Positions 2,009 through 51,547 of a stretch of DNA of 64,000 nucleotides are shown here, piece after piece (the first letter of the stretch is position 1; each line of letters starts with the position of its first letter). Under the pieces are notes generated by a model, which saw only the letters and a program-made list of their open reading frames with translations, ran no database searches and was not told where the DNA came from. The stretch lies in contig JAJFPB010000011.1 in assembly GCA_020881915.1 (NCBI GenBank), forward strand, positions 1 to 64,000. The letters run 5' to 3'. The position numbers and the translations under genes were made by a program. The DNA is from Paramyrothecium sp. XJ0827 (lineage: Eukaryota > Ascomycota > Sordariomycetes > Hypocreales > Stachybotryaceae).

Positions 2009-5000
2009 TCACTCCTCCTCTTCCATTATCCACTTACATAACTCTGCAAATCCCCGGCACATCTCATTTGTCTCCATCCCACCCCATAACTTAATCCTCC
2101 TTCCTGCCCATGTATAAAACCCCCTCGACTCTCTCTCTTGCCCACTTAACCCCTTGACCTTATCCTGGAAAATACAAACGGCTGCCCTGTAAAACCGCGC
2201 CAATACTCCTTCATACTGACATTTCCCTCCCTGTATCTTCTCGTATCTCCCCGTCATCATCCATTACCTTCCATCCATTACAAACCTTGTATGGCAACCC
2301 ACACCCAAAACAACCGCTGTACGGTTCAAACCCTCGCTTTCGAAACATCTCCTCTTCTATCCTTGCCATAACCCCGCTCACCTCTGTACCCTGCCGTACC
2401 CTTTAACGGGCACTCTTCCATTCTGTGCTCATCTGCCTCATCCCCATCCGGCAAATCGCACAACACTCTGCCCAACTTTCCAAATAACCCTCCAACTCGC
2501 TCGCCATCGCCGTTTCCTCCATCATTTGCTTCCTGCTTTGCCACTCTTGGAATGCAATATCTCGTCTCTGCCGGTCGAACGCTATTTGTGCCTCTGCGTA
2601 TTCGACTTCGTCTTGGTCTTGGCCTTGGTCTTGGCTTTGGTTGTCCAACTTTTCTTCTATTCGTCCGCAAACATCGCATTGCTCTTCACCTTCTTCACAC
2701 CCCTCTCGATCCGTTCGACCATCCATCGACATATCCAATATCTTTCGCCGGCATTCCTCCCTCTCCACGTAATCCACACTTCTCTCCTCTCTTTCTTCCT
2801 TACACCACCCGCTCTGCTCGGCCTTTGCCTTTTGCCGCCTCTCGGCCTCTTGCTTATCTTGTTTCAACCCCGGCAAATAACAACCGCATCGCTGACTTGC
2901 CCGTCTCGTCCCGCTCGCCCGCTCTCCTGTACGTAATCTCGAATTCGCCTCGGCATCCATCCATGCACTACCAACCTTATGTCGGGTATATCGATTCCCA
3001 TCCCTAATGCGTTCGTTGCCACTATAATTCTCTCTCCCATCATCCACATCTGTAACCGTTCCTTCTTGCCCTCCTTTGTGTCGACCTTGTTGTAATATGT
3101 GCCACAACCAAACATCTCCCTAACCTCTTCACCCGTTCCACTGACCCGCCATAAATGATCACCTTGCCGTCGTGTCCTCCACGGATCCATGCTTCTACAA
3201 CCTCTTTGATCCTCTTATCTTCTGCCATCTGTGCCTCCTCTTCCTCTTGCCTCCAATGTGCCTTCCCTTTGCCCCTTGCTTTATTACTCCTATGCTCCAC
3301 CTTGATGACGCTGTACCGTATGTTGCGTCGTGTTGTTTTGCTTCGAAACACTACCTCCCGCCCGGGCTGGATCGCCGCCACCTTGTAAAACTCGACCATC
3401 TCGTCCGGGCCCATCGTGGCTGTTAAAAATACCCGCTGCACACCCCACTCCCGAACCACCTTTCCGACTTCGCTTAACTTTGGCCGGAACGTTGCGCTGC
3501 CATCCATTAATGTGTGGCACTCTTCTAAAATCACTCGGTCCAAAACACCCTGGTTTTGCAATCGGTTGACGTAATCTCGGAACCCGCCCGTCACCGCTGA
3601 CTCGGGCGTCACGAAAACTATGCTTGCTGTCGGCGTTCCCTGCTGGCTGTTCCATATATGGGACGTAATTTGGAACTCCGTGCAACGTTTATGTAAATCT
3701 TCCTGCAATGCAACCAATGGCACTACAACGATCGTTGTCCCCTCTGGTGAACAATATGCCGGCAACATGAACGACAAACTCTTGCCTCCACCCGTGCTTG
3801 TGATCTGGATAATCGGCGTTTCCCCGCGATGATGGCCCGGATCACCTTCGACTGTTGACCACGAAACTCTGTCCCTCGTCCCATCATCTGCTGTAACTGT
3901 CCGGAAATATCGACTTGCCGTAACCGATGTAATCGTCGGAATCGCCCTTCCTCCCGCTCGCTTTCGAACTGATCTCGCTTGCGCTTCCGCCCGCCCTGCG
4001 CACTCGCCCCTGTACCGAACCCGAAAAATCGATGTAACTCGTGGCTGATGTTCCGGAATTCCTCCCGCATCCGCGCTGTGCCTCCTAACCCTTGTTGTAA
4101 CTCTCGCGCATAAATTATACCCGCGATATGCGATTGGTGGCCGGCCTGTAAATCCGCCGCGTCATTGTCGATCCCGTCCTCGTCTTCGTATTCCACCCCG
4201 TCTTCTCCCACCCTCTTTGCAAACTTGCCTCCTAAATACCGGTTGGATATCGCGATGGCGATGTGCCGCCATACGCTGATATTCAACCGACAACCCATTA
4301 ATCGCTGGCTGATCTGCTGTAAAATTCGCCGCGCCCGATCCGGTGTCCATTTTCTTTCCCCACCCAATTCTTCCATTCAACGGGTATGGTCATATCGATG
4401 CCTTCGTCTTCCGACTGGCTTGACCGACTTGACCGACCTACCTGACTTGACCGACTTGCCCGACTTGACCTTGCTTGTGCCAAACTCTCCTTGTTGCCAA
4501 TTCCGTCCGTACTACCCTTTTCTTCTCCAAACTCCCTTTCTCCTTCCTCCTCGCTGCTATATCCCTCGTCTTCGTCGCTGTTGTGGTGCCGCTTGCGGTA
4601 TGCGATCTCTTCGCTCCATAAAAATGGGCTTACTTGGTCTGCACCCTTGACCATACCCTGCACCTGCTGCCAAAACGGCAACACCAACCACAAATACCAA
4701 ACCAATAATTCCCCAACCTCTCTGGGTATAAAACGGTGAATGATTTTCGCCTGGCCCGTTTGCTGGAAATTTTTATGGTATGCTGTAACGAAACATACGT
4801 CGCCGTTGTGGATAAAAATGTTGCGTGTGCCGCCGTTGCTGGTGTTCTTATACCGTATTCCTAAAATTTCCCATAATCGCGCGGGCATTGACAATAAATG
4901 CTTCAAAAACCACATCAACTCCCGGAACCGCTCCAATATTTTGCTGTACTCCTGCAATGCCTTCTTTTTGTACGGATGCTTTTGCTTTTCATCGGTCGAA

Positions 5001-16142: not shown

Positions 16143-16234
16143 TCCAGTGGCGGCGGCTGATACATGGGCACCCTGCTTTGGATATTTGGGCACCCGATGG
16201 TACATCCACTGCACACTCTGAACCCTAAGATACT
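16143..16234. repeat. Left arm of an inverted repeat
   Basis: The reverse complement of this segment reappears at 18431-18520 with about ten mismatches. Shared blocks include GGTGCCCAAATATCCAAAGC and GGGTGCCCATGTATCAGCCG. The pogo element lies between the two arms, so the arms belong to an older structure into which pogo jumped. Confidence 0.9.
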
Positions 16235-16483
16235 ATCAAGAAATCACTAAAATAATTTTTTATAAAAAGGTCAGGTAAGTAGGTAAGTTATAGTAGGAAG
16301 GTCAATGTAATTTATCAGTGTATTATATATTAATCTTACGAGTTTATGGCAAAGGGCTATTTGCTTGCTTTTGTACTTCATAGGGTGCGCTAGTCCGCTA
16401 ATATCAGCAAATGCAAACATACAAAGAGTACAAAAGCAGCGGCATTACACTTTTGCAAATTTATAAGATTGAAATATAATATA

Positions 16484-18341
16484 ACGTACATGATAAGCGA
16501 GTGCACCAACCAAGCGAGTGCACCAAAAATTACTCAATCTCTCCTCTTTACATCTAATCAACTATTTCTCAACCACCAAATATGTCACAATCAAATAATG
16601 AAGCTAATATGCTTCTCGCTCTTCGGGCCCTTCAAAATGACCCGAAACTGGGTCTACGACCCGCCGCAAGATTATACCAGGTGGATTATTATGCCCTTCG
16701 TCGCCGACAGAGGGGCATCCAGTCTCGGCGCGATACCATCCCCAACTCACGGAGACTATCCGATCTAGAGGAGCAGATTATTGTCCAGTTCATTCTCGAC
16801 CTGGATTCGCGAGGATTTCCCCGCGACTGCGTGGTGTTGAAGAAATGGCCAACCGACTGCTCGCTGACCGCGACGCGTCACCTGTCGGCAAGCGCTGGGC
16901 TTCCAACTTCGTCAGGCGACAACCAGAGCTCAAGACGCGTTTTTTCGTAAATATGACTATCAGAGGGCTAAATGCGAAGATCCAACCATTATTCGCAATT
17001 GGTTCCGGCTCGTGGAGAACACAATCGCGAAATATGGCATCGACCTAGCCGATATCTACGACTTTGATGAGACCGGCTTTATGATGGGCATAATTGCAAG
17101 CGGAATGGTCGTCACAGGTGCAGATAGGCGTGGAAACCCGAAATCAGTCCAGCCTGGAAACCGGGAATGGGTTACAGTCATTCAGGCGATTAATGCCGAA
17201 GGCTGGGCGATCGCGCCGTTCATCGTGGTCGCGGGCCAATATCACCTCGCAAGCTGGTACCAGGAAAGCAACCTTCCGGGCGACTGGGCTATTGCGACAA
17301 CTCAAAATGGTTGGACCGACAATGAGACCGGCCTTGAGTGGCTAAAACACTTTGACCGGCATACCAAGGCCCGATCAACCGGTCGCTATCGTCTTCTGAT
17401 CCTCGATGGGCATGGAAGTCACCACTCGGTTGACTTTGAGAAATATTGTGAAGATAACCATATCATTACGCTGTGTATGCCGCCTCATTCGTCTCACCTA
17501 CTTCAGTCTCTTGATGTCGGGTGCTTTGGGCCACTCAAAAAGGCATACGGTCGAGAAATAGAGCATCTGATCAGGTGCTCTATAACCCACGTTTCTAAGA
17601 CTGAGTTCTTTCTGGCATTTTACGCCGCCCACCAAGCCGCCATAATAGAAATTAATATCAAAGGGGGTTTTAGAGGGGCCGGGCTTGTTCCTTTAGGCCC
17701 AGAAAGTGTCATATCGAAGCTTGATGTGCAGGTACGAACTCCAACACCGATTGAGGAGGAGGCCTGCCTCCCCGACCCTTGGGTGCCCAAGACGCCAAAG
17801 ACGGTCCTTGAGGCTACCTCTCAATCTGAATACCTTGAAAGACGAATCAGAAGGCACCAGGGAAGCTCCCCAGCATCTATTGTTGATGCGCTTAAGTCAT
17901 TTTCTAAGGGAACGAAGGCGATAATGCATCAAATAGCATTATTAAAGTCTGAGAACCAGATCCTTCGACAGGCAAATGAGACTCTTAGCAAGCGGCGTAG
18001 GGCAAAAAGAACCCGGCTACAGAATGGAGGGAAGATGACTATAGGTGAGGGAAGGGATGAGATTGATCAGAAAGACGTTGATGCGCAGATAATGGCTGGA
18101 TTGTTGAGAAGTGGTGGTCGAGGGAGGTCAGCACTGGCGAGAGAAAGGCGCTGTAGAACCTGTGGAAATACCGGACATAATTCAAGAACATGTCAGATAG
18201 TTGTGTTAGTATCTGAAGAAGACGATAGTGATTAATTTTAATTGATTAGATGTTTTGTAGTGATTTTAAGTAATGTTCTATTTTAATGGTGTGAATTTTT
18301 GGTGCACTCGCTTGGTTGGTGCACTCGCTTATCATGTACGT
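16484..18341 (+). mobile_element. pogo-type DNA transposon, copy 1 (1858 bp)
   Basis: The element is bounded by perfect 48-bp terminal inverted repeats (16484-16531 and 18294-18341) and by a TA on each side (16482-16483, 18342-18343), the target-site duplication of Tc1/mariner/pogo elements. Each terminal repeat begins ACGTACATGATAAGCGAG and contains the direct repeat AAGCGAGTGCACCA twice, probably paired transposase-binding sites. The identical ends suggest a fairly recent insertion, although the transposase is frameshifted. Confidence 0.95.
16582..18235 (+). pseudogene. pogo transposase, two frameshifts
   Basis: From ATG 16582 the protein shows an N-terminal helix-turn-helix region (LALRALQNDPKLGLRPAARL), a CENP-B-type DNA-binding segment (MANRLLADRDASPVGKRWAS), and a DDE catalytic domain with Asp in YDFDETGF, Asp in LILDGHGSH and Asp in LLQSLDVGCF. 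A basic coiled tail and a CCHC zinc knuckle (CRTCGNTGHNSRTC) end it. Comparison with the second copy at 27.7 kb shows frame changes near 16825 (in GATTTCCCCGCG) and near 16945 (in a T run). The catalytic part from 17012 on is intact. This copy cannot make a full transposase from one frame but its ends could be mobilised in trans. Confidence 0.92.
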
Positions 18342-18430
18342 TAGTGATAAAAGGAGCTGAAGTTTGTAAGAATAATTGCATTATTTCCCTAAAGTTCATC
18401 ATTTTATTTTTAAGTATTTTTTTCCGGAAG

Positions 18431-18520
18431 GTATCTTAAGGCTCAGAGTATGCAGTGGATGTACCATCAGGTGCCCAAATATCCAAAGCAGGGTGCCCAT
18501 GTATCAGCCGCCTCTAGTGG
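18431..18520. repeat. Right arm of an inverted repeat
   Basis: Inverted match of 16143-16234. The outer end is at about CCGCCTCTAGTG, where similarity stops. The arms may be the terminal repeats of another, older element; I could not find a target duplication outside them. Confidence 0.9.
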
Positions 18521-18919: not shown

Positions 18920-21900
18920 ATGGCGACCATGATAGCTGTTGTTGGACTTGTGGCATCTGCTTTTCGTGTTAGATCTGCCCTTTTCGCGTCGTTGAGCCCT
19001 AGCCTGCGGCGTGATGATGGGCTATCGACATCGTTCGGTATCCAAGTGTTGGATGATGAGCCAGAGAACCCGGTTGCTGAGTATGGCCTCTGAGTGCTTC
19101 TGTACACGATATTGGCACTGATATCGATGTAGCATTTGCTTCGTTCACGGTTTCAATGGGGATCTAGTCTCAACGTGGTTGTCGCCCGACTCTGATGGTA
19201 AAGACAAGTTCTGGTGGCCGAAGGAACTCCAAAAACAAACCAACGTCCGCATTCTGCTATATGGCTATAGCACTGTGGCTCCAACGGCTGAATACCTCGC
19301 TCGACGGACGCTATACCGCCAGGCCGAGCACCTGGTGGAAAGCCTCGCTGATGTGCGTAAAGATCACCCGAGACGGCCGCTCGTCTTTGTTGCCCACAGC
19401 CTCGGCGGCATTGTTGTTAAGAGTGGCCTGATCTTCTCCAGTCAGAGCCTAGAGGAAAGTAGTCCCACCCGGGCCATTGCGCTCTCAGTCGCGGGTATTG
19501 TCTTTATAGGGACGCCATACAAAGTACACAGTCACCTTAGCTGGTCGCCTGGGAGTGTTCTGCGAAGAATCGTCGAAGTGAGTGGTCAGAATCGAAAAGC
19601 TCTGAAGCATCTCGATGATGAGAGCAGAGCACTTCAAAGCTACTTGGAACCGTTCGAGGCTTTGAGCACCGACATTCCCATAATATCATTTTATGAGTCA
19701 CGGGGCACCGAGCGCTTTGGTCATGTAAGTTGATCCAGTATTCAGACTATAGGGAGCAATGCATCTAATACCTGCAGATCGTGCCACCTTCAACGGCTGT
19801 TCCAGATGCTGAGTACCATTTCTTGGACTCAAATCATGCCAATCTAGCGAGATTCAACGGCCCTAACGATCGTGGTTATATTATGGTAGCTTCGGCCATC
19901 CGAAGGCTGTGCCAGGAAGCTACTTCCTTGGTTGATAAGAGCTGGGACAAATACCGACAAAGCAAGGGTGACATTCCACATCCCACATTCAACCACCTAG
20001 ACGGGTTCTAGTATGCTAATGAACAACTTGCAGAGCCAAATACCTGTCAGAATGACAAAAGACTAGAAGATTTCCGGGTTCCTCTACGGCTGTCATTCCA
20101 ATCCTCGAGCTTCATCGGTAGGGAGGACGCGCTCAAATGGATTGAAGGCTCCCTGTTGGGGAAATGCCCCCCTGATTGCCTAAACAACTGCCACACAGTC
20201 AATCTTCACGGACTTGCAGGGATTGGAAAAACTCAGATAGCGCTGGCATTTGCCCACAGGTTTCGCGACAGTTTCAGCTCAATCTTCTGGATTCCCTCTC
20301 AGACGCGTACCGCAGTCGAGCACGGATTTCTTGAGATAGCACGTGCTCTATGGTCACCAACCTTCGAAGCGGGAGATGAGGGTTCAGCACGCGAAATAGC
20401 CTACTCGGTGCTGGAGTGGCTTAAATTCAGCCGTAACACCGACTGGCTGCTCATATTTGACGACGTCGATCTTTCTGCTGCGCCAGATGTCATAGAACTG
20501 ATCCCAAGCACAACCTGCGTCCACGGCCATGCAATCATCACCTCGAGAGCCCCATTGAATCTTCCCTTCGCGAAGACGTACAAAGTGGGTCCTCTGCAAA
20601 AGGAAGACTCAAGGGCGCTTTTAGAGACATACCTAGACCCTTTTCCGGATAGTTCGTATACTCATAGCTATCATGGTTTAAGAAACCCCACTAACCGATC
20701 TTAGAGTCGGATTTGGACAGGGTGCCAGAAGCCCTAGATGGACATCCTCTCGCACTATCAATGGCAGCTGACTTCATGAGGCAAAGCAGCGTGTCGCCTA
20801 GAGAGTACTTAGAAGTATACCACGAACGACAGTCCGAACCTTTGCACCGGAGGATGGACATGATCTTTGCGGAGTCCATCGACAAGATCTCCATATCGCC
20901 AGCGAAGCTACTTTTCTCCATGTGCTGTATACTCTCTCTGGAATCGATTCCGTTATGGATCTTCGAAGAAAGTTCAGCGACTTTCAGTTCAAAAAGCAAG
21001 TCCGATACCTACAGATACTAGTTCTCAAATCCCGCGGCTGACATTTGCTTGTAGGGGTTCTACGAGAATCCATCTCCGTGCTAGAGAACCTTAATCTCAT
21101 AGTTCACCGGCCGTCCCAATCCCACATACTAGTCCACCGCCTAGTACGCGACTATGGGCGGAAACTGCTCCCGGCGGCGCTACAATCTGACGCCCGTCGT
21201 GAGCTGTGCGAGACCGCGTCATACGTCGCAGTCGAGCGCAAGCAGACTGTGGCGGGATTCCTAGGACCCGCCAACGACGTTACTTCCAGTTTCGAAAAGG
21301 AGCTCGTCGAGCTCATTGTTGACACTCTCCCCATAATTCTTTCCCATCTGACCTCTTCGTTGGAATGGGATATCGACCTGGAGGAGCTTGGCAAAGTTTG
21401 CCAAGCACATGGCAGGTTCTCCGAGGCCGAAAAATTCTACGAACTACACCTAGAGAGGAACAAAGAGCCCGCAACATCGGTCTCACGGGCAAAGGTCAGA
21501 CTAGCCCTAACCCGGCGCCATACTGGAGAGCGTTTAGAGACCGATACCAATTCCGAGGATAAGAGCCTCGGCGTGCAATTCCAGGAGGTGGTAGAAGCTG
21601 CTCCTGACGACGAGTCCCTGCGGGACCTGAAGTCGCTCAATCGCAAGCAGGACGACCCCGAGCAAGAACTGGAGGTTCTGCGGATGATCATCGAGGCGCA
21701 GGAGGAGCGCTTGGGACCCATGAGCTCGTCGACGCTCGAATCCACCCAGGAGATTTTCCATCGACTGGTCGAGCAAGGCTTCCTGGACGAAGCGGAGGCC
21801 AAACTACGGCGCATCCTAATGTCCTACCGCAAGCTACACGGCCCACACCACCCGAGCACGACCCGCATCGCAGAGCACTTGGCCTCGGTCTGCGCCTCGC

Positions 21901-22382
21901 TAGGCAAGCTAGACGAGGCCGAGGCGATCTGTGAGGACGCAAGTCACGACTATGAGAAGCGCCTCGGGCGAGACCATGCTTCTACGCAAAGGTGCTTGGC
22001 GCAGCTAGCATTCACGTATTATCTTAAAGGGCGTTACGTCCTCGCAGAATCGTTGTTTTTTGAGGCCAATGATACCCTTACCAGGACGGCAGGGCCTGAC
22101 CACCCCGATGTTCTGTGGATACAACACAACTACGCCCTCAATCTGATGAAGTTAGGAAGGACACGGGAGAGCCGGGAGCTGCTGCAGAATGCGTTGCGTC
22201 GCATGGAGGCGCATCCGGGGATACACCCCATGAGCGCCAGACGGACTACTGCCATCCAGCTCTTCCAGGAGATCGAGGGAGATTCGACTGTTCAGGAAGG
22301 CGATGAACTCTGGAAGATGGCAAGGTACCTGGAAGATAAGTATGACTTGGAGAGCAATGGTGAATTGGATTTGTCGCCTTGA
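18920..22382 (+). CDS. NLR-type receptor: lipase-like, NB-ARC and TPR domains
   Basis: Exons 18920-19080, 19133-19724, 19778-19967, 20034-about 20651, about 20705-20990 and about 21055-22382 give roughly 1,050 residues. The first three introns (52, 53, 66 bp) keep phase; the last two junctions lack good donors and are approximate. The N-terminal alpha/beta hydrolase (SesB-like) shows ICFVHGFNGD and the nucleophile elbow FVAHSLGG. The NB-ARC ATPase shows a P-loop GLAGIGKT, Walker B WLLIFDDVD, HAIITSR and a GxP motif LDGHPLAL. The C-terminus has several about 42-residue TPRs of the kinesin-light-chain type (for example GKLDEAEAICEDA, HPSTTRIAEHLASV). Fungal proteins of this architecture are intracellular receptors in heterokaryon incompatibility and cell death. 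Its stop lies 125 bp from the convergent gasdermin-like gene, suggesting one functional island. Confidence 0.9.
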
Positions 22383-22507
22383 GAACTCGTGGGCATGGTT
22401 TGTAATAGGAATGGGCGCGGCCGTGGTTCTACATTCAGCAGGGATGAGGTTCAAGTGTCCATCGCCATGGATATATAGTAATCAATGCAATATTGTACGT
22501 GTGCTAC

Positions 22508-23428
22508 CTATGCATAGAGTACCAAGTCCAACCCGTCGTCATCCTGGCCCGACGGGTCAGAGATACCTGTACTTGCGACTGCTTCACCATTCTCCCTAGT
22601 AATTTCACCCAGCATCCCTTCCTGGTCACCTTCTATGTGAGTGGGCGGGACGGAGACGGTCATGGTGAGTGGGTGAATGGTTTCAGACGTAAAAGTGATG
22701 TCGTGGAGGGACGGTGTATGCGACTCCCAAAACTGCCAACCGCTCGGCCGCTGCTTCAGTCTCATTTCCACATAGCCGCAGGCAATGATGACCTCGTCCT
22801 TGTAGGTACCAGAGAGCTCAGCTTTGGTGTTGCCGCCGGCATTCGCCTCCAGCGTGAGGTCACCGACTCCCCCCGGTCCCCCCATGGCCTCGCTCGCGAC
22901 AGTGGCGTTGCCGCCGGCTTCGCGCTCCTCCGACTCGACGTTTCCCACCCCCATCTCAAGACAGGAGATGATGCTGACTATGATTCCGAACTTAGCCTCG
23001 GGGAACCGCTGGAACAACTCGATGATCGGCCCGTTGTACTTGTCGTTGTTGAGCAGACTCTCGATCTTGCTGTTCTGCTCCTCCATGGTGATGCGGCGGA
23101 AGCCCGGGATCGACAGTTTGATCTGGCTCGACTTCTTGTGCTTGTAGAAGAGACTCAGGACCTTACTGATGGAGGCCTTGGCGCTCTCGTCGTGTGCCTT
23201 TTCACGGAGCACCTCGGCGTTTTTGGCCTCGACGTGTTTGGGGTAGAGGTTTGGTTCGAGCTCCTTCAGGTCCGGCCCGACGGTAGGCAGGCGCGGCCTG
23301 ATGGTGGACTCTGTGGGACGCTTCAGGGAGTCGCCTTCGAAGTATACGGCTCGGCCGAGGAGATCGGGGATCCGGTGGCCGGGGACCGGCTCGGTGAGGA
23401 GGAAATAGTCCTTGGTTGCGGGGGGCAT
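22508..23428 (-). CDS. Gasdermin-like pore-forming cell-death protein
   Basis: A single-exon gene encodes 306 residues, close to the size of known fungal gasdermin-like proteins. The N-terminus DYFLLTEPVPGHRIPDLLGR, a basic central stretch (KHKKSSQIKLSIPGF), a Gly/Ala/Glu-rich region, and the strand DEVIIACGYVEMRLK fit the fungal gasdermin family (RCD-1, HET-Q1) as I remember it. Family members permeabilise the plasma membrane once a C-terminal inhibitory tail is cut off. About 80 acidic residues follow the last strand here and could be that tail. The neighbouring CHAT protease gene is divergent, which fits the protease-plus-gasdermin pairs reported in fungi. The call rests on short motifs and context, so a profile or fold search is needed. 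The alternative is an unrelated fungal protein. Confidence 0.62.
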   Translation of the reverse strand: MPPATKDYFLLTEPVPGHRIPDLLGRAVYFEGDSLKRPTESTIRPRLPTVGPDLKELEPNLYPKHVEAKNAEVLREKAHDESAKASISKVLSLFYKHKKSSQIKLSIPGFRRITMEEQNSKIESLLNNDKYNGPIIELFQRFPEAKFGIIVSIISCLEMGVGNVESEEREAGGNATVASEAMGGPGGVGDLTLEANAGGNTKAELSGTYKDEVIIACGYVEMRLKQRPSGWQFWESHTPSLHDITFTSETIHPLTMTVSVPPTHIEGDQEGMLGEITRENGEAVASTGISDPSGQDDDGLDLVLYA

Positions 23429-23709
23429 TTTGAGTTTACCTATGTTCGAGTCAGTATCTTGTCCGGGTCGTGTCTAGACAGGACAAGGACAGAGCAGAAT
23501 AATGACAAGACTGTATAAAGACAGGGTAAACTGGGTTGAAGCCAGAACCTGTCTCCTATATTTTTTATATTTAGGTAGGTTGAGCGCGCTTGCCACTGAC
23601 CTTTTCCAAGGGAGTGGATGGGTTTTAAAATGTTTGGTTGTAGTTGAGGATAATAGAAAAGGGAATTAATTGAGGGTCAAGGTTGTGGACGCGAGGAGAG
23701 GGAAGGTCT

Positions 23710-23803
23710 TGATGAAATAAGGTTGGGGGCTCAGCTCTGATGAAATAAGGTTGGGGGCTCAGCTCTGATGAAATAAGGTTGGGGGCTCAGCTCTGATGAA
23801 ATA
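23710..23803. repeat. 28-bp tandem repeat in the divergent promoter
   Basis: Three exact 28-bp units start at 23710, 23738 and 23766, followed by a partial fourth at 23794. The core is TGATGAAATAAGG plus TTGGGGGCTCAGCTC. It lies between the gasdermin-like gene and the CHAT gene, which are transcribed away from each other, so it could influence both promoters. Confidence 0.95.
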
Positions 23804-23968
23804 TCATGCCACAGCTGCCCGCCTCCGAGTCCCAAGCGCATGTGATAAAGTCCAACAACTTCGTATGATACATCACGTTCATCTGCCATTGACGATATAA
23901 TGCATTTGGTCCTGTCGCAGCCCCTTTGAACTGGACCAAGTCTGGACGTCCAATGGACACTGGGCGAC

Positions 23969-26330
23969 ATGCTCCAATTCTTTAGGATACGCCAGTATAT
24001 TGTGCTTTTTCTTACACCATTAGCCAGCGAAATGCTGCGAATGCCTCTCCGGCTCCACATTGACGCCTTCCTTCCACGACCTCCCTACAACAGCAACTGC
24101 GACAGCGCAGACAATATCAGCATTACCCGCAAGAGTTACGAGGGCAAGTGTCTCAACGGCCATCGGATCTGGACTGTGGTCGTCGCGATCAATGGCGAGA
24201 GCAATGAAAAGACCCTGACGGATCCTTTTGCTGACGTAGAGTACGGAGATCACATAAATCCTCGCACAGGACTTCTATGCGACGAGGTACGGCCGCAAAA
24301 CCTGCACTCCCCTATTTAAAACAAAATTATGGTGCCTTTTGGGGGTTGTCTAACAACTTTTCGATGAAAATCAGTGCTCAAGGTCTTATTTCAAAAAGCT
24401 TGTGTCCCAATTGGGCCTCGAAGGTGTTGTGTGCCAGGGCTTGCCGCACCGCCAAATCACCATCCACGAAGAACTCGACAACGAAATAAAAGGCGACCGC
24501 GATGCGACGAGCGAACCGAGCATATATTCCCTTTTCTGGGAGGTGCTGGAGAATGTGCATTTTTGGCAGGCCTGCGCACTGACGAGAGTCAGGCTCTGTC
24601 GCACATGGACATTCGCTAAAGTAGAGTCCGGTTTTGTCACGCAGCAAGTACCACAGCCGTCCTTACTATCGGGCCAGAAGGCAGAATATCGCATACTGCT
24701 TGTCATAGCCAGGTCGTCCAGGCGGGACGCGACCGGGAGATATCGGGACTATCGTCCAAATCTCGTGCTGGGCGCCCTACTCAAGATTGCCTTCTGGTGC
24801 AAACAATGGGGCCGCCTGCCCAGAGTGCGCGTCGACGTGGTGCGACCTGGGACGATCGATGAGCTCGGGCGCGAGCTCAGGAGGCGCAAAAAGAGGCCCT
24901 ATGACATTGTTCATCTGGACATGCATGGGAAAATTGATATAAGACCGTCGTCCATACAATCTTCGTCGATGGCAGCAACGCCGTATCTGCGATTTGCGAA
25001 GCATTACAATGAAGACCTAGGCAGGTTTCGTGACAGGGAGGACCCCGTCGCGGCGCTCATGCAGCACGACGACTCGTTGGACGACGTCGAGGTGGTCAAA
25101 GTCGCGTCGCTACTGCAGAAGTACGGCATCACCAATGTCGCCCTCAGCGCTTGCCTCTCGTCCTACGCACAGCGGGACATGCTTGCCAACATGTGTCACG
25201 TCTTCCTGAGCCACGGCGCCTCGAATGTCTCGGCCATGAGCTTCCAGGTACTCGCGAACACGGCGCAGGTCTACTACGCCGCCTTCTACGAGGCGCTACT
25301 CGTCAATGGCCAGTCCTTCCTAAGCGCTGCTGCCGTCGGCCGCGAGGCCCTCCGTGCGGACCCCCGCCAGTCCGCCAACGCTCCGATCCCGACAAACTAC
25401 CACCGCGCCGCCAGGGTCTCTACTAACGACTTCTGGCCGAAGCACCGCCAGCGAGTGGCTTGGCTCTGGCTGTTTGCGGGATACTGCTTGCGACTGGGTG
25501 CGATTCTGGGCGTTGCATCAGCCTGGCTGCCGCTCTACTCTCCGGCGGCATGGTTTAAATTTCCGGGGGGACGCCTCGGCAGCCTGTCGCTCGCCAGCAT
25601 GGTCTGGTATGGGTCGGTCCGTTGGGTGCGGCAACTGCAATGCCCGCTCTGGCTTTGGAGGCCGCGCCCGGTCAAGGTCTTCCACCCGCGCGAGAACCTC
25701 AGGCAGTTGAGCGGTCACGTTGAGATTGAGCACCTGGTGCTGGAAGACCGCCTTAAGGTCGAAGCCAATCAGGGCGCGGTCTATCTCTGGAGCGGCGACG
25801 CCAAGGCAGCGCTGGGAAGGGTGATCGCGCGTCTGGCCCGGGTGTGGGTGCGTACGGGCTTTGTCGACTCCATCGACATCATCCCGGCCATGGTGTTCAC
25901 GTCGCGGCTCTCTAGTCTGCAGTGTTGGCTTCGATTGTGGATCACGCGCCATACGAGCAATGGTACAGATAGTGATGGCCTTGGTCGAAGATGGCTCGTT
26001 GTTATCACTGACTTTGACGGGTTTTACGATGTCTATCGTCGGCGCGGTAGACCGGCGTCGGGGATGAACATTTCGGGCGCGGCTCTTACAGAGTTGCAGG
26101 ATGCCCTTTGGCGCATGACAGAGTTTGTCAGTCGTTATGAAGAGGACAATGAGACTGATGTAGAAAACGGGGACTCGAACGACGGCACGGTGATTGGAAA
26201 GCCATACCTGATTATTACGGGGTCGTACAGGGCCGACCAATGGCAACAACTGTCATGGTTCAAACCGGAGATCACGGAGACCATTGGTCGAGCAGTGCCG
26301 CACCTCCACGACATCAAGCCGTCTCAGTAA
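23969..26330 (+). CDS. CHAT (caspase-like) protease with degenerate STAND NTPase
   Basis: Exon 1 (start at 23969, or ATG 24041) ends at 24286; an 88-bp GTACGG...CTAAC...CAG intron (24287-24374) joins in phase to exon 2 (24375-26330), giving 733-757 residues. The CHAT protease fold shows YDIVHLDMHG (candidate catalytic His codons at 24912 and 24924) and NVALSACLSS (Cys codon at 25152), followed by the usual SHGASNVSAMSF and AFYEALL segments. Two hydrophobic segments follow (about 25455-25530 and 25590-25660). The C-terminus resembles a STAND NTPase but its P-loop reads SGDAKAALGR instead of GxxGxGKS, while WLVVITDFD and YLIITGSYR keep the later motifs. It is the likely activating protease for the divergent gasdermin-like protein. 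Additional 5' exons are possible. Confidence 0.8.
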
Positions 26331-27610: not shown

Positions 27611-29452
27611 ACGTACATGCATAACGAGTTGGCCAACATAACGAGTTGGCCAAAAATCCCTCATCCTACATCTCAATCAATTGATCAAATGATTCACCAC
27701 AACTAGCCATGTCAAGCTCAATTAATGAGGGCGATATCAATCTTGCACTTCAAGCCCTTCGAAAAGACCCAAAATTAAGTCTGCGACGTGCTGCACGGAT
27801 CTACAACATCCCTCGGCAGACATTGCGTAACCGGCAGTGTGGAAAACAGTCTAGACGCGATACTATGGCCAATTTACGTAAACTTTCTGATCTTGAGGAG
27901 CAGACGATAGTTCAGTATGTTCTTGATCTAGATTCACGAGGATTTTCACCCCGGCTTTGTGGTGTTGAAGAAATGGCCAATCGACTGCTTGCTGATCGCA
28001 ATATGCCTTCTGTTGGACCACGCTGGGCTTCGAATTTTATTAAGCGGCAACCAGAGCTCAAGACGCGTTTCTTTCGCAGATATGACTACCAGAGAGCCAA
28101 ATGCGAAGATCCAGTCGCAATAAACGCGTGGTTCTCGCTTGTACAGAACACAATCGCGAAGTACGGTATAGGATCAAATGATCTGTATAACTTCGATGAG
28201 ACTGGCTTTATGATGGGCGTTATTGCAAGCGGAATGGTTGTTACGGGTACAGAAAAGCGTCAGAACCCTAAAAAGTCCAGCCTGGAAACCGGGAATGGGT
28301 TACAGCGATCCAATCGATCAATGCTGAAGGGTGGGTGCTACCGCCGTTCATCATCGTTGCAGGCCAATATCATCTCTCGAGTTGGTACCAAGAAAGCAAC
28401 CTCCCGGGCGATTGGGCTATCGCAACCACCAAAAATGGCTGGACCGATAACGAAACAGGCCTTGAGTGGCTAAAGCACTTCAATCGGCATACAATCAATA
28501 GATCAAATGGTGCCTATCGTCTTCTGGTCCTTGACGGGCATGAAAGCCACCATTCAGTCGCCTTTGAGGATTTCTGCAAGGAGAACAAGATCATTACACT
28601 CTGTATGCCACCTCATTCGTCTCATCTACTTCAGCCTCTTGATGTGGCCTGCTTTGGGCCGCTTAAGAAAGCTTACGGTCGAGAAATAGAGCATTTGATC
28701 AAATGCTCTATAACACACATTTCGAAGACCGAGTTCTTTCCTGCCTTCCACGCCGCACACCAAGCCACTATGACGAAGAAAAATATCCAGGGAGGTTTCA
28801 GAGGGGCTGGACTTGTTCCTCTTGATGTAAAGCATGTGATCTCGAAGCTTGATATCCAATTACGAACTCCAACACCTCCTACAGGTGAGTCAGAGCTTCC
28901 TGACCCTTGGACTTCAAAGACACCAAAGACCATCCGGGAAACCGAATCTCAGTCCGAGTATCTAAGAAGACGAATTGAAAGGCATCACAGCAGCTCCCCA
29001 GCATCAATTATTGAGGCCTTGAAGTCAATGACTAAGGGAACTAAGGCAGTATTGCATGAAATGACATTACTGAGGGCTGAGGTCAGGGATCTTCGAGAGG
29101 CAAATGAGATACTAAGCCGGCGCCGGAGGGAAAAAAAGAAACGCCTACGTAATGGAGGGACAATGACTGTAGAGGAAGGTCAAGGATCAATTGATCAAAT
29201 GGATGTGAACACGCAGATAGTGGCCGAATCATCGAGGAGAGGTGGTCAAGGAAGGTCGGCACAACCGACCCAAAGGCGCTGTGGTGTGTGCGGTAAGCCC
29301 GGACATAATGCACGAACTTGCAAGATTGAGGTAGAGGTATCTGAGCAAGAGTATATCGACTAGTTTTAATTGGTCAAATGGTCTGTTGTGTTTTTATTGA
29401 AGTTTCTATCTTGAGGGTTGAGATTAGTGGCCAACTCGTTATGCATGTACGT
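27611..29452 (+). mobile_element. pogo-type DNA transposon, copy 2 (1842 bp)
   Basis: Terminal inverted repeats of 25 bp (27611-27635 and 29428-29452) begin ACGTACATGCATAACGAG, and TA flanks both ends. On the left the ATAACGAGTTGGCCA unit is repeated a second time; on the right it is present once. The first eight bases match copy 1 at 16.5 kb but the rest of the repeat differs, so the two are related families rather than sister insertions. Confidence 0.95.
27709..29363 (+). pseudogene. pogo transposase, one frameshift
   Basis: The frame starts at ATG 27709 and shows the helix-turn-helix region (LALQALRKDPKLSLRRAARI), the CENP-B-type segment, YNFDETGF, then after a frame change in AAAAAG near 28275 the rest of the DDE domain (LVLDGHESH, LLQPLDVACF) and a CCHC knuckle (CGVCGKPGHNARTC). 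It is similar along its full length to the transposase at 16.6-18.2 kb. A single indel separates it from an intact gene. All three catalytic Asp positions are present. Confidence 0.92.
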
Positions 29453-39347: not shown

Positions 39348-42300
39348 TCAACTCAGTCTTCCCGTCGCCATCGCAAACTTGACTGTCGCTCGCACCGCCT
39401 CCAGGTTAGGTGCCCATTTGGGTCCATCTGACGCCGGCTTTCCACCCAGGAAGAAGGAAAGGTTTCCCATCATGCTTTGTCCAGCTTGTCGCATGTTTCC
39501 GCGCTCCGTATCCCACCTTGTGCATCGGAACAGGAAATGCTCCATCGTCTCTGGTGCGCGTCCGCACTCACACATGTCCGACCCTGCGGCCCCTATCGTG
39601 CTCAGGTAACTGTTGATCCTCGCCATTCCCGTACGAAGCTGCGACAGCACGTCGGCTTCTCGCCTCTTCAAGCTATCGTACAGCGCTTTCGTGTGCTTGC
39701 CCGGCAGGGCTCGGTCGATCCGCTTGGAGTAGCCGCCCACTTTGTCGGGTAGTCTCCGTTGCTGGCGTAGCCGCGCTGCCACTAGCCTGGTCCGGGTAGA
39801 GCGAGCCTGGTATGGCAGCACTTGCAGTGTGCATTCTGCTCTGGTTGCTCTCTGGGCTTGTCTTTTTGCTTCGCGGCCCATGGTGAGGTCGTCGTCTCGG
39901 GATGGTACCCATATCATTTTGACCCTGTTGTTTCCCTTTCTCAGTCGCTCGACGTGCTCATAGATCTGACGGATGGTGACCTGGCCAGACTGCTGTCGCG
40001 GCCGTGCGATCGCTTTGAGTGATGACTGGCTACTTGATAACACCGTAAGCTCTCGGCATTGCAGACCATCGGGCATGCATCGCAATGCCATCGCTATCGC
40101 CTCTAGCTCGGCCGTGTATGGGTTCTGGTCGTCTCGCGGCCCGAGGGTGACCGAATATCTGGCCACCATCTTATCTGTCTGGCCAGATGATCTGTATGCT
40201 ACGATGCCGCCTATACCTACAAGCCCTTCTCTGTCAGAAGCACTGGTTGCGATCACAATATCGTTGGCATCTTTGGCTGCTGTTATCGTTGCTTCCCGAT
40301 CGGCTTCGCATACCAGCGATACACGGTTGTGCCACGGTGGTACCGTATAAGCTTGGATCGTCTCCATCCGCTCGATACCGCTCCCTTCGTGAGCAAGTGC
40401 CAGTCTCTTCAACGGTGACATGTATCTTTGGCTCGTTGACACCTTGAGGGTTGCGAGCGGATGTGTCTTTGGCAGGGTCTGGATGTTGATGTACGATCTC
40501 ATGCCAGCTTGAGCATGCCTCTCGCCTACCGTCTGGAGGCTGGCCTCCGCTTCGGCCACTGCCGTCGACACTGTCCGAAAAGCGCCCGTGATGGCCCGCG
40601 CCCCCATCTTCTGAGCCCTATTGAACCAGGTCAGTTCTCTTTCACCTCGTGCGTGCGACCACACGACAGAGGCATAGTCCATGGCCGGCGCCACGGTTGC
40701 CACGAAGAGCTGCCTGGCCGTACGTGGGGATAGCATCTTGAGTCTCCTCAGACACATGGCTGCCGTGAGACCTCTGGTGGCCGCCTCGGCCATGTACTTC
40801 TTGAACCTGAGCTTCGCGTCCATGACCACTCCCAAGATCTTGGCCTTCTGCTTCGGTTTGATCACTTCTCCCTTGATCATGAACGGGATGCGGCTGGTAC
40901 GATCAATGACGCGCGTAAAGTGGACGATGGTCGTCTTGTCGCACTCAAATGTCGCCCCGCTGCACCTCTCCCACGCCAGTGCGCGGTCGATGATGGCCTG
41001 TATGCCGTCCCTGTTCTCTTCCGCCGTCGCACCTGTGACCCAGGCTGAGTAGACGTCGACAAAGGCGATCGAGCCTCCCTTTGAGTCTATCCTGCTCTGC
41101 ACCAGGTCTGCGTTGAAGAAGAGGAAGAGGATCGGCGACAGCGGCGACCCTTGCGGAAGGCCAGCCTGGGGCAGCTCCCGTAGCGCAGACGTGTAGCCGT
41201 TCACCGTGATGGTAGCCGTGCGGTTCGAGCAGAAAGCATCAATCCACCTGACCAGCTTCTTTGGTATATCCCGCGCTTCCAGCCTTTGCAGCAGCCTGTC
41301 CTTGAACACACCGTTGTAGGCACCCTTGACATCAAAGCTAACCAGGCTGACGACTTTGCGGTTGCGCCATGCTTTGTAGACCTGTTCCTGGAAGAGCAGC
41401 AACGCCTGCTCTGCCGACCGCCGCTTTCTCGCCCCAAAGTGGTTGGCAGGCAAGAGTCCGTACGTCTCGACGGCGTATGAGATGCGATCCGCCACTACTG
41501 CCTCGAGGATCTTGCCCAGCGTCGACAGCAGCGAGATCGGCCTCCACGCCTTTGCCTTCTTGTAGTCATCTTTACCCGGCTTCTTGAGAGGGGTGATCTT
41601 GGCGGTCCTCCACTGGTCTGGCAGTCGTCCTTCGCTCAATGATGTACGGAACAGGCGCAACACCCGCTCCTTCACCACCGACCACAGCTGCTTCCACACC
41701 ATGGCCGGCAGCCCGTCTTGCCCGGGCGCCTTCCATGCCTTGGCTTCCATCACCTTCTCCTCCACCTCCTCCATCGTCAGGTTTGGCATGGCCACTTCTC
41801 TGCGCCGCGGTCGTGGCCCTTCATCCTCTATGTCTGCCGGTAACGGCGGGAAGAAGGTCCTAAGCAGTTCCTCCGCCTGTTCGAATTTATCTTGCGTCGT
41901 CGTCCCGTCTGCTCGTTTCAACGGAGGCACTTTATCACCCTTCGTCTCGTCTCCGGGTTCGAGGTACCTGGCGGCTTGCCAGATGTTGGTCCCGTCAGCG
42001 AGAAAGTCATCCCAATGTGCCTTCTTCTGCTTTCTGATGGCGTCATGATACTCTTTTGCTGCTTCTTTGGCTCGATCTTCTAGGCTGTCGATCCGTTGAC
42101 CAGCTCGACGCCGGGCCCTCGCCAGATTCCTCCAGAACGTGTACGTTCTACGGAGCTTCGTGAGATCTGCCGTCCACCATCTCTTCGCGTATGGTGACGG
42201 CTTTGCTCTTGGTACCAGTTCATGGATCGCGTCGAGAACCACTTCCATCAACCTGTCCGTCTGTGTCTGGACGTCACCATCCCACGAGAGTAGTGCGAGC

Positions 42301-43104
42301 TTATCTTTCACCCTCTCCCTGATTGCATTCCACGGTGCATTCTTGAACAGTAGCCTTGAGTCTGCCGTTCTCTCAGGCGTCGTGAGATCAAACTCCGTCT
42401 GGATGGCCCTGTGGTCTGACCCGTGTTCAGTCGGGTGTATGCCGCAATGGACCATCTCTTCTGCTAGCTCAGCTGACGCGAGCGTCAGGTCGATGGTGCT
42501 CTCGCCACCCGGTCCCTCCCAAGTCTTCGTCCCTCGTGGGAGAAGACTGAGCAGACCATGTTCGTCCATGAGATCGATGATAGGCCCCGCCTCACCTTGC
42601 CTCCTGCCTGTTACCTCGTCGCCTCCCCAGAGCTGGCCGTGACGGTTGAAGTCTCCGACCAGGACGATGTCCGTTCTCTTCCCCGTGCTGCTTCGAAAGC
42701 CCGCGACGGTCGTGTGTAGCTGTCTTATGGCCGTGCGCAAAGCATCCTCCTCTTTACCCGCCACATATACTGACACCACCAAGACCTCCCGGTCGGGCCA
42801 CCGAAGGATGGCACCCGTGAGATCGGCCGACGGTATCGGCACCTGTTCCGCCTCCAGGTCGCTGCGGATCCAGAGCATGCTCCGGATCGGCCACTGCATC
42901 TCGTGTCTCTTTGTCGGTATATACTTGATCCAGTTTCTGTGACTGTCTGGTGTCGTCACCACCGATCCCTCAATGTTCAGCGCGTACGGTTCGGCGACCG
43001 CCAGCACTGCATAGTCCTGCAAGTCCCTATCGTTCATCATGCTTAGCTGCGTTACATCTCTCTTGTGTACGTTAAGTTGGAAGATTCGTAGGTTAGTGCC
43101 CATC
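39348..43104 (-). CDS. LINE ORF2: endonuclease, reverse transcriptase, RNase H
   Basis: From ATG 43104 the frame is open for about 1,251 residues. Domains in order: an AP-type endonuclease (IFQLNVHKRD, VLVGDFNRHG, GSDHRAI), a reverse transcriptase (APGQDGLPAMVWK, PISLLSTLGKILE, GLPQGSPLSPILF), an RNase H (NPYTAELEAIAMAL), and a C-terminal Cys/His motif (CECGRAPETMEHFLFRC). The reverse transcriptase catalytic motif reads FVDVYSAWVTG; the second Asp of the expected FVDD box is Val (codon GTC at 41052-41054). Loss of that Asp should abolish polymerase activity, so the copy is probably dead despite an open frame. Confidence 0.92.
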
Positions 43105-44261
43105 AGTGATGTGTAATTGTCGCACCCGACAGTTTCGACTGAGCGACTCATGCGGTCCTCCACACAGCACGCACTTTGGTTCGACCGCTTGGCAATCTCG
43201 ACGGCGGTGACCCGTCTCCGCGCACTTGCCGCATCGTTGTGTCTTGCTGCAAGCAAAAGCTTTGTGGCCCGTCTCCCAGCAGTTGTAGCACTGAGCAGGG
43301 CCTTGCACCTCCAGCTTTCTCGGCCGTCCCTTGCCCGTACCTTCTCTTCGATTGCTTGACGCACTTCTCCGACTTGCACCTTGCCTCTGTCCTCTTGAAT
43401 GACTCGCGACGTGTCGATGGTGCAGAACAGAGTATCCGTGAATGAGGATGGTGTCGTGCGCATGGATGAGAGCGTACGGACGTTGCTCGGCTGGCTTGTG
43501 GGTGGGGAACGGGCTACATCTGCATACGATGGCTGTGGGCTTGTCTGAGCGCTGCTGGCGATAGTATCGGCCATCACATGCAGCTGCTCCTTCACCTGTT
43601 GCATTTCCTCCTTCACTTGTTTAATCTCCTCTGCTGTCTGGGCTTGAACCTTTGTAAGTTCCTTCATCACTTCCTCTCGCAATTGCTCCATGTCTCTCGC
43701 AGTCTGTTCTCGCATGGTTCTAATTTGTTCGCTCATCTGCTCTCGCATTACTCTCAGCTGCCTGGTAGACTGTTCATGCAGGCGTCTAAGCTCGTCTGAT
43801 TTCTTCAGCTCTTCGGCTGCCTGCGTCTTGACCGCCTGGATTTCCTGCTGGAGCTGTCGGATCATCTCCAGCTGTTCGCCCATCATCTGCGTCGCCGTTC
43901 GCCGATTGCCCATCAACGCGTCCCAGAGTCTCTCAAGCATTTTCTTCTGCTCACCCATCAGATGGGCCGACGTCTCCTGGAGCATCGCTCGGAGCATGAC
44001 CTGCATCAACGACGCGTCGGTGCCCGTCGCGCCTTCCATCCTCTGTGGTTCTCCAGCCCTATCAGTCAGCGGAATCTCACCAGCATTCTCACTGACTTCC
44101 GACTGATCCGGGCCGATCTTGTTTGCTGCGCCGGTTTTCTTTGTCGCTGTCTGCAGCGTTTCCTGCAATTTCGCCGTTGGCTTCGCAGGCCTCGAGGACC
44201 GACGCGCCGCCACGACAGAATCCCCATCTTGGACCAGGATCTCCCCAGCAGTCGCGTCCAT
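43093..44261 (-). pseudogene. LINE ORF1 (gag-like), one frameshift
   Basis: The likely start is ATG 44261 (MDATAGEILVQDGD). A long coiled coil follows (MREQMSEQIRTMREQTARDM and neighbours), then a nucleic-acid-binding end with three zinc knuckles: CYNCWETGHKAFAC, CGKCAETGHRRRDC and CVLCGGPHESLSRNC. The knuckles lie in a different frame from the coiled coil; the change falls near 43330-43345 in a GGGCAAGGGACGG stretch. The knuckle frame stops at 43093-43095, overlapping the ORF2 start by 12 bases, the normal ORF1/ORF2 layout. The indel therefore fuses ORF1's front to ORF2 in one 1733-codon frame and drops the knuckles. Confidence 0.8.
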
Positions 44262-44551
44262 TTCGCGGCAAAAACGCTCACGGCCTTGCCGGCTTCTACG
44301 CTCCCCCGAAAGATTATAAAGATTGTAAAGATTGTAAAGATTCCGTACCTCCTTGAGTCCAACCCTCTGTCTCGAGACAGTGGGTAGCACGGAATCTTCT
44401 AGAGACCAATCCCCAGTTTCGGCGGGGGGACGTGACCAATGAGAACCCACCATCGTAAGCCCGCTAAAGGGTGTCCTCCAGCCCCTGGTAAGTGGGTCTA
44501 CAACTACCAGCCTTGCGATAGCATCACATAACCACAACACTGCATACAAAC

Positions 44552-44944
44552 ATGGCTTGTCCTACCGTTCCCCATAGATATCCTTCCGACACACCAATTC
44601 CATTTGTGGAAAGCCTGAGTGATGGGAATGAAGACAACGATCCAATAATTTTAAGTCGCGAGCAGCTTCAGAGAATCAACCATTCTCGAAGGGAAATCGA
44701 CCTCTGCAAAAATGACTATGAGAGGTACGAGGCATGGTATCATATTCTCAAGCCCCAGCATACAGTGTTCTTCAAACCAGTTATCACGCACTTGGTTTTC
44801 CGGCTCTATGACAAGCAGACACTGGGACTTAGCGGTCATATCCTGCAATGGACCGGCATCGAGCAGTGGCTGCAAACTGCCATAGTACAGATGAGCTGGA
44901 ATCACAAACGAAGATATAATAGGGCGTGCATTGCAATACGCTAG
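44552..44944 (+). CDS. Hypothetical protein, weak evidence
   Basis: A 130-residue frame starts immediately upstream of the LINE's 5' end. It has a disordered Pro/Asp-rich start, then a helical stretch (RREIDLCKNDYERYEAWYHI) and a mixed region. No family is recognised. The opposite strand also has a long frame (44651-45196), so coding is uncertain. It could be a gene cut by the LINE. Confidence 0.25.
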   Translation: MACPTVPHRYPSDTPIPFVESLSDGNEDNDPIILSREQLQRINHSRREIDLCKNDYERYEAWYHILKPQHTVFFKPVITHLVFRLYDKQTLGLSGHILQWTGIEQWLQTAIVQMSWNHKRRYNRACIAIR

Positions 44945-51100: not shown

Positions 51101-51547
51101 GCGCAACCAGTTATCATTGTCGAGGTGGACCTGGTTTTTCTGCTTTCTTTTCTCTTTGAGCACTTGACAAGCGCGGATGTGACAGATCCAGCTCTTCCTC
51201 AAGGCCTCGAGACATCTATAAAGCAGCCGTTCGCGTCCCTTCGGTACGTTTTCTATGATTTTTATCACGAAAATACGCTAAAGGTATTTCGGCCCCACAA
51301 CTCAGCAACAGTAGGCGAAAATGTGGTGTCTCGGATATTCCCTCTCTTGCATACTGGTGAGCAAGAGAATTTGAGCTTGGAAACCTCGGTAATCGATATT
51401 GCTGACTTGGTAGAAAACATGGAAGAACTGAAAGAGACTCATGCGGCTATAATCAATGCGTTAATTTCAGAGGATAAGGGCATATGTCACGTTGATGAAG
51501 AAGTTTTCCAGCGTTTAACTGGCTGGACCCTAGATCAAAGGAGCTGA
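48140..51547 (+). CDS. STAND protein with HeLo-like N-terminus and NACHT domain
   Basis: Exon 1 (48140-48564) and exon 2 (48616-51547) join across a 51-bp GTAAGT intron in phase 2 to 1,118 residues. The N-terminus (MSGLEVLSVACNVMQVIGAA, about 200 residues, helical) resembles the HeLo-like domain of fungal STAND proteins. The NACHT NTPase follows with Walker A WIRGKPGSGKST (codons near 49160) and Walker B ICIFIDGMDEI (near 49495), and SSRAEW as sensor. The C-terminus is a helical region commonly attached to fungal NACHT proteins; I see no ANK, WD40 or TPR repeats. Such proteins act in non-self recognition and programmed cell death; HeLo-like domains can be membrane-active. All key NTPase motifs are present and the gene looks intact. 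Confidence 0.9.

What the first reader, a model, noticed from the sequence alone, without database searches (positions are those of the whole stretch)
18920..26330. Candidate three-gene cell-death island: NLR, gasdermin-like protein, divergent CHAT protease
Seen: an NLR with lipase-like, NB-ARC and TPR parts ends 125 bp from a convergent 306-residue gasdermin-like gene, whose start is 0.54-0.61 kb from a divergent CHAT protease gene with a His/Cys dyad. Known: fungal gasdermin-like proteins (HET-Q1, RCD-1 family) kill cells after proteolysis, and their genes often pair with protease genes, including caspase-like ones. Inferred: the CHAT protein cuts the gasdermin-like tail, and the NLR may sense the trigger or belong to a linked system. 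A third NLR-type partner next to the pair would be an unusual arrangement.
Basis: partly seen in the sequence, partly recalled or inferred. Interest (0 to 1): 0.96.

Follow-up and report, generated by a model that had tools for sequence, protein, structure and literature searches.

The report
Fungal receptor–protease–gasdermin cell-death cassette
Near the end of a fungal contig lie three neighbouring genes for an immune-type receptor, a caspase-like protease and a gasdermin-like pore protein; parts or all of the trio recur together in other fungi, which suggests a built-in cell-suicide circuit laid out like the human inflammasome pathway, not yet tested.

Summary
At one end of a contig of a 51.8-Mb fungal assembly lie three intact genes: an alpha/beta-hydrolase–NB-ARC–TPR receptor (1059 aa), a convergent 306-aa protein 125 bp away, and a divergent two-exon CHAT gene 540–612 bp from it. 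The 306-aa protein has no informative Pfam hit, but its AlphaFold model (mean pLDDT 52.6) puts gasdermins in the first 16 of 29 structural rows, Neurospora RCD-1 first, at middling Z. The genome's only other detected gasdermin-like gene is convergent, 394 bp away, with the receptor's best paralogue; no CHAT or S8 match was listed within 100 kb of it. Gasdermin–CHAT pairs are published; the passages I read do not describe a separate hydrolase-type receptor, CHAT protease and gasdermin. Likely mechanism: receptor senses, CHAT cuts the acidic gasdermin tail, pores kill the cell. Sensing, cutting and killing are inferred. New variant of a known kind.

The parts
18920..22382 (+). NLR gene, 1059 aa, exons 18920-19080, 19133-19724, 19778-19967, 20034-20651, 20705-20995, 21055-22382: N-terminal alpha/beta-hydrolase (SesB/SERAC1-like) domain, NB-ARC, TPR array
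   Evidence: Splicing and single terminal stop; Pfam; family alignment A4
19133..19724 (+). Most of the hydrolase domain, with HGFNG and AHSLGG (Ser143) motifs
   Evidence: best in-genome paralogue lies beside the second gasdermin-like gene
20034..20651 (+). NB-ARC domain with Walker A (GLAGIGKT) and Walker B (LLIFDDVD)
   Evidence: Pfam NB-ARC 23.7 bits, cut-off 23.5
21055..22382 (+). TPR array
   Evidence: TPR_12 E 3.1e-24 (frame 21042-22382)
22383..22507 (.). 125-bp convergent spacer between NLR and gasdermin stops
22508..23428 (-). Gasdermin-like gene, 306 aa; core about residues 11-258, acidic C-terminal tail ending in DLVLYA (DFVLYA in most relatives)
   Evidence: Fold; alignment A2; tail conservation
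23429..23968 (.). Divergent intergenic region between the gasdermin and CHAT genes
23969..26330 (+). CHAT gene, exons 23969 (or 24032/24041)-24286 and 24375-26330; CHAT domain, hydrophobic segment, C-terminal part of unknown kind
   Evidence: PF12770 35.5 bits; dyad motifs in 22 of 23 aligned; intron; hydrophobic segment

Best explanation
A three-gene regulated-cell-death cassette. Shown: a protein with a predicted gasdermin fold, a CHAT cysteine-protease-like protein with an intact His/Cys dyad, and a hydrolase-NB-ARC-TPR receptor are encoded side by side, and parts or all of the set recur together in Dothideomycetes and Sordariomycetes. Inferred: the receptor binds a trigger, oligomerises through NB-ARC, and directly or through its hydrolase activates the CHAT protease; CHAT, possibly held at a membrane by its hydrophobic segment, cuts the acidic linker before the conserved DFVLYA end of the gasdermin; the freed core assembles pores and kills the cell, as defence against non-self nuclei, viruses or other invaders.
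Confidence: 0.62

Rival explanations
1. The NLR and gasdermin are the older working pair: the NLR's hydrolase (SesB-like) domain licenses the gasdermin directly, for example by acting on membrane lipid or an acyl group, and CHAT is a second, partly independent activator.
For: The only other detected gasdermin-like gene in the genome is convergent with, and 394 bp from, a hydrolase-NB-ARC-TPR gene, and that gene is the best in-genome paralogue of the window NLR for both the hydrolase exon (38%, E 1.3e-23; next best 2.7e-16) and the TPR exon (28%, E 5.2e-20; next best 2.8e-16). Whole-genome searches list no CHAT match (20 listed) and no S8 match (92 listed) in the 20 kb around it; the nearest are 125 kb and 311 kb away.
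Against: One extra locus only; a protease of another family or an unlinked one could serve it (only CHAT and S8 were searched for). The sole CHAT paralogue lies 125 kb away on the same contig with 2 in-frame stops in the match. I know of no case of a hydrolase activating a gasdermin. The hydrolase Pfam scores are below the cut-offs.
Confidence: 0.17
2. A plain gasdermin-CHAT two-gene cluster of the published kind, with an NLR of an unrelated system next to it, kept close only by general clustering of incompatibility genes.
For: Two-gene gasdermin-protease clusters are the printed norm. NLRs are common (18 NB-ARC matches listed in this genome, a lower bound), and another NACHT protein lies in the same window.
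Against: The same NLR subfamily shares a contig with the gasdermin or CHAT in 6 of 8 close relatives and 0 of 28 distant ones; tight convergent spacing; paralogous NLR beside the second gasdermin-like gene.
Confidence: 0.15
3. An idiomorphic incompatibility or toxin-antidote-like locus in which one neighbour restrains the gasdermin and does not activate it.
For: Patchy set of relatives, place near a contig end, transposons on both sides; het-Q1/het-Q2 are idiomorphs and rcd-1 loci are rearranged (passages).
Against: No population data; a neighbouring protease with an intact dyad fits activation better.
Confidence: 0.06

Closest known systems
Fungal gasdermin + CHAT (Q2L) two-gene clusters, Clave et al. 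2022 (known here only through passages of PMC10197012, PMC12881547, PMC10989679)
   Same: Gasdermin gene within 10 kb of a CHAT protease gene; short C-terminal tail
   Different: There a large share of the proteases carry their own TPR/ANK/WD40 repeats, and some are NLRs; here Pfam finds only CHAT on the protease, and NB-ARC and TPR are on a separate third gene
RCD-1 of Neurospora crassa (8jyy, 8jyz)
   Different: 9% identity; RCD-1 is controlled by a partner allele and not by cleavage (PMC12881547 passage); here a protease gene is adjacent
HET-Q1/HET-Q2 of Podospora anserina
   Same: Gasdermin with a tail of about 40 residues that is cleaved off (PMC10989679 passage)
   Different: HET-Q2 is an S8 subtilisin-like protease; here CHAT. 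An allorecognition role is untested here
SesB-like NB-ARC-TPR NLRs (PMC12258605 and PMC9815663, passages; Dyrka 2014 PMC4986451, listing only)
   Same: Domain order hydrolase-NB-ARC-TPR
   Different: The passages seen mention no gasdermin partner for this NLR type; the word gasdermin does not occur in PMC12258605
Mammalian NLR-caspase-gasdermin D pathway
   Same: Three separate proteins of comparable kinds
   Different: No CARD or PYD seen in the Pfam scan, not searched for otherwise; CHAT is a distant cousin of caspases; here the genes are clustered
Bacterial gasdermin operons
   Same: Gasdermin beside caspase-like/CHAT proteases, with NLR/NACHT among the labels of the operon figure (PMC9612521 legend)
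   Different: Bacterial; a hydrolase-NB-ARC-TPR receptor is not among the labels in that legend

Membership tests
Gasdermin superfamily (fungal gasdermins) | Gasdermin N-terminal pore-forming fold | tested here: met
Gasdermin superfamily (fungal gasdermins) | Recognisable sequence similarity to a described gasdermin | tested here: inconclusive
   No gasdermin Pfam match, no PDB sequence hit for the protein or two profiles. Its in-genome relative (24% id, E 1.9e-11) has the HET-Q1 pore 9uv9 as best PDB hit, not significant at E 0.15
Gasdermin superfamily (fungal gasdermins) | Short C-terminal inhibitory tail | tested here: inconclusive
   36 residues after GDQE, acidic, variable linker and conserved end; inhibition not testable
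Gasdermin superfamily (fungal gasdermins) | Pore formation and cell killing | not testable with these tools
   Needs experiment
CHAT protease family (PF12770) | Pfam CHAT match over the curated cut-off | tested here: met
   35.5 bits, cut-off 24, model positions 114-274 of 289
CHAT protease family (PF12770) | Catalytic His/Cys dyad | tested here: met
   H184 and C260 of P0037; motifs present in 22 of 23 aligned proteins
CHAT protease family (PF12770) | Protease activity | not testable with these tools
   Needs experiment
Fungal NLR, SesB-like-NB-ARC-TPR type | NB-ARC and TPR array in one protein | tested here: met
   NB-ARC just over cut-off, TPR_12 E 3.1e-24; exons splice into one frame
Fungal NLR, SesB-like-NB-ARC-TPR type | N-terminal SesB-like alpha/beta hydrolase | tested here: inconclusive
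   Abhydrolase_6, PGAP1, DUF676 matches below curated cut-offs; HGFNG and AHSLGG motifs present
Contracted fungal pathway with protease fused to the NLR | CHAT and NB-ARC in one protein | tested here: not met
   CHAT and NB-ARC lie on separate genes on either side of the gasdermin; the CHAT C-terminal part does not align with NB-ARC (hhalign probability 0.2 on a scale of 100)
Gasdermin-protease gene cluster | Protease gene within 10 kb of a gasdermin gene | tested here: met
   540-612 bp apart, divergent
Inflammasome-type pathway | Receptor activates the protease through CARD/PYD or other contact | not tested
   Only the Pfam scan of the exons at E up to 1, which listed no CARD or PYD

The most novel reading that the evidence does not exclude
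A fungal three-protein counterpart of the inflammasome: a separate hydrolase-type NLR, a separate (possibly membrane-anchored) CHAT protease and a gasdermin, inherited as one cassette, in which the NLR-gasdermin pair is the older core and the hydrolase-NLR can engage a gasdermin even where no CHAT or S8 protease gene is adjacent, as at the second locus of this genome.
Probability: 0.35. Interest if true: 0.82.

Novelty: new variant of a known kind. Interest (0 to 1): 0.62.

Why it matters
In animals a receptor, a caspase and a gasdermin are separate proteins; in the passages I read, fungal versions put the protease into a repeat-bearing protein or into the receptor itself. A conserved fungal cassette with all three separate would give a compact model for how an NLR hands a signal to a caspase-like protease and a pore, and would tie the large, poorly understood class of hydrolase-type fungal NLRs to gasdermin death. 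The review PMC12881547 calls the stimuli of these sensors a major open question (passage); this locus offers a small trio on which to ask it.

Tried and rejected
Idea that the CHAT C-terminal part is a decayed P-loop NTPase: not supported; hhalign against the NB-ARC columns gave probability 0.2 of 100 and Pfam listed only CHAT and a weak DUF357 match. Kept as a part of unknown kind.

Idea that the island is a composite transposon carried by its two flanking DDE elements: the elements are only 73.6% identical over 1829 bp, so they are not twin copies; not pursued.

Relatives with their DNA: the viral-contig scan with the gasdermin profile matched 37 stretches, none a relative. No fungal genome collection was open to me, so synteny rests on contig lengths and locus tags.

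Control with other CHAT proteins of the same genome: the script picked short or wrong frames at several of the 8 loci (L001, L002, L004 at least), and its pattern found no HG site at any of the 8; I use neither result.

The Fisher figure (p 1.4e-5) compares unlike sets of species, so I quote only the counts. The NLR list was cut at E 1e-30.

PADLOC: no hit for the two gasdermin-like proteins or the CHAT protein; a weak DUF626_VIII hit (E 2.3e-5) and a weaker Cas3fv hit to the NLR relative P0039, not followed.

Papers: the primary gasdermin-protease paper (PMC8851545) and the bacterial CARD paper (PMC12373157) are not held. Searches for a three-gene or hydrolase-NLR-gasdermin report; [quoted passage not shown] Of each paper named I saw passages only, never the whole text; Dyrka 2014 as a listing only.

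Full report
What is there. The window is the first 64 kb of contig C2 in a 51.8-Mb fungal assembly of 15 contigs. Its first bases hold scattered CCCTAA-like units, which suggests a chromosome end. Between two DDE-type transposons lie three genes. The NLR (18920-22382, +) splices into 1059 residues with one terminal stop; four introns are GT-AG and the fifth reads best as GC-AG at 20996, the choice that restores the SSKRVLRES stretch shared with relatives. The 306-residue gene (22508-23428, -) ends 125 bp from it. The CHAT gene (23969 or 24032/24041 to 26330, +, one intron 24287-24374) begins 540-612 bp from the start of the 306-residue gene. No frame is broken.

The protease. Exon 2 matches CHAT above the curated cut-off. 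The dyad motifs are present in 22 of 23 aligned proteins; the exception, P0033, is a 405-residue model that lacks that part. In the segment after CHAT the most hydrophobic 19-residue stretch averages 1.34 to 2.76 across the 23; in the window protein it is 1.56, the highest of its exon-2 part. In the Xylariales relatives this looks like one or two membrane helices; in the window protein it is borderline, and in P0017 (1.34) a later stretch is more hydrophobic (1.99). The last 200 or so residues match no family tested.

Linkage in relatives. The protein searches print the length of the longest contig behind each hit. Taking identical lengths as the same contig, all three families occur together on contigs of 2,004,722 bp (Neocucurbitaria sp. 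VM-36) and 1,010,802 bp (Ophiobolus disseminans), and two of three on five more: 4308 (NLR, gasdermin), 142,226 (Xylaria telfairii; NLR, gasdermin), 158,244 (gasdermin, CHAT), 451,112 (Rosellinia necatrix; NLR, CHAT) and 2,897,681 (Hypoxylon trugodes; NLR, CHAT). The first two species are Pleosporales (Dothideomycetes), the last three named ones Xylariales (Sordariomycetes); Elaphomyces granulatus, a Eurotiomycete, has a gasdermin relative at 74% with no linked hit in my lists. In Neocucurbitaria the tags are consecutive and in the window's order: Nn.00g062120, 062130, 062140. On the 4308-bp contig the coding lengths sum to 3930 bp, so the genes must be nearly touching. Of the NLR hits, 6 of the 8 closest share a contig length with a gasdermin or CHAT hit, against 0 of the other 28; the sets differ in species, so this is a pointer and not a test. 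Against it: P0040 and P0041 among the 8 are not linked, and only 5 of 13 gasdermin hits and 5 of 23 CHAT hits are; two of the three searches scored only about 8000 candidates. Identities to the window go roughly in step (NLR/gasdermin/CHAT): 62/70/61 in Neocucurbitaria, 57/69/62 in Ophiobolus, 49/-/50 in Rosellinia, 35/-/39 in H. trugodes, 51/44/- in X. telfairii, 68/74/- on the 4308-bp contig, -/51/43 on the 158,244-bp contig. That fits inheritance as a set.

A second locus in the same genome. The gasdermin query finds one other place, C8:3792873-3793442 (24% identity, E 1.9e-11), in an open frame of 372 codons (about 305 from its likely Met). Convergent with it and 394 bp away is another hydrolase-NB-ARC-TPR gene. 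It is the best in-genome paralogue of the window NLR by its hydrolase exon (E 1.3e-23, next 2.7e-16) and by its TPR exon (E 5.2e-20, next 2.8e-16). A rough count of mine, 29 listed hydrolase places times two sides times 0.8 kb in 51.8 Mb, gives about 0.1% for such closeness by chance. Whole-genome family searches list no CHAT match (of 20) and no S8 match (of 92) within 100 kb of this pair; the lists are lower bounds, and other protease families were not searched. Neighbouring frames hold a DH/PH-domain protein and a weak phosphoesterase match. The only paralogue of the window CHAT lies 125 kb further along the same contig, with 2 in-frame stops in the match and a HET-domain gene beside it. 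So the receptor-gasdermin link looks at least as old as the CHAT link. This is one locus, and divergent gasdermins may have been missed.

Mechanism. Most likely the NLR is the sensor, CHAT the activating protease and the gasdermin the executioner. Shown: gene identities by domain and predicted fold, intact dyad, linkage. Established elsewhere: HET-Q1 is activated by removal of about 40 C-terminal residues, and a TPR-bearing CHAT protease activates its neighbour gasdermin in Podospora (passages). Inferred: that this CHAT cuts this tail, that the NLR controls CHAT, and that death follows. The role of the hydrolase domain is open.

Against what is known. Gasdermin-CHAT clusters are in print, with CHAT (or cysteine proteases) in about 17-19% of clusters, and so are NLRs that carry CHAT themselves, called contracted pathways. 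[quoted passage not shown] HetB of Aspergillus fumigatus is a CHAT protein in incompatibility, with a gasdermin link suggested by the authors (passages of PMC11138114). SesB-like NLRs are common. What I did not find in eight literature searches is a cassette of separate hydrolase-NLR, CHAT and gasdermin. The primary survey was not readable here, so it may already list it. I therefore call it a new variant of a known kind.

Noticed in passing
G000 contig C8:3792555-3797500 (loci L010, L012): Second gasdermin-like gene convergent, 394 bp away, with a hydrolase-NB-ARC-TPR gene that is the window NLR's best paralogue; no CHAT or S8 match listed within 100 kb.
   Followed up: partly
C8:3918111-3922991 (L015, L016): Only listed in-genome paralogue of the window CHAT protein, with 2 in-frame stops in the match (introns or decay), next to an 818-codon HET-domain frame (PF06985, E 4.9e-24).
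   Followed up: partly
16144-18520: DDE_1 transposase frame (16868-18235) flanked by an inverted 50-bp repeat (16482-16531 and 18294-18343, 100%) nested within an inverted 90-bp repeat (16144-16233 and 18431-18520, 92%), ending about 400 bp before the NLR start.
   Followed up: partly
27685-29363: A second DDE_1 element downstream of the CHAT gene, 73.6% identical to the first, in two overlapping frames.
   Followed up: partly
48596-51547: A 983-codon frame with NPHP3_N, NACHT and DUF7791 domains: another fungal NLR-like protein in the same window.
   Followed up: no
39348-44561: A 1737-codon frame with endonuclease and reverse transcriptase domains, as in LINE-type retrotransposons.
   Followed up: no
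45764-47014: Chromate transporter family frame (PF02417).
   Followed up: no
3040-4161: DEAD-box helicase frame close to the contig end; subtelomeric helicase genes are known in fungi (recalled).
   Followed up: no
CHAT protein family, residues about 352-438 of P0037: Hydrophobic segment after the CHAT domain, strong in Xylariales relatives and borderline in the window protein: a possible membrane anchor.
   Followed up: partly
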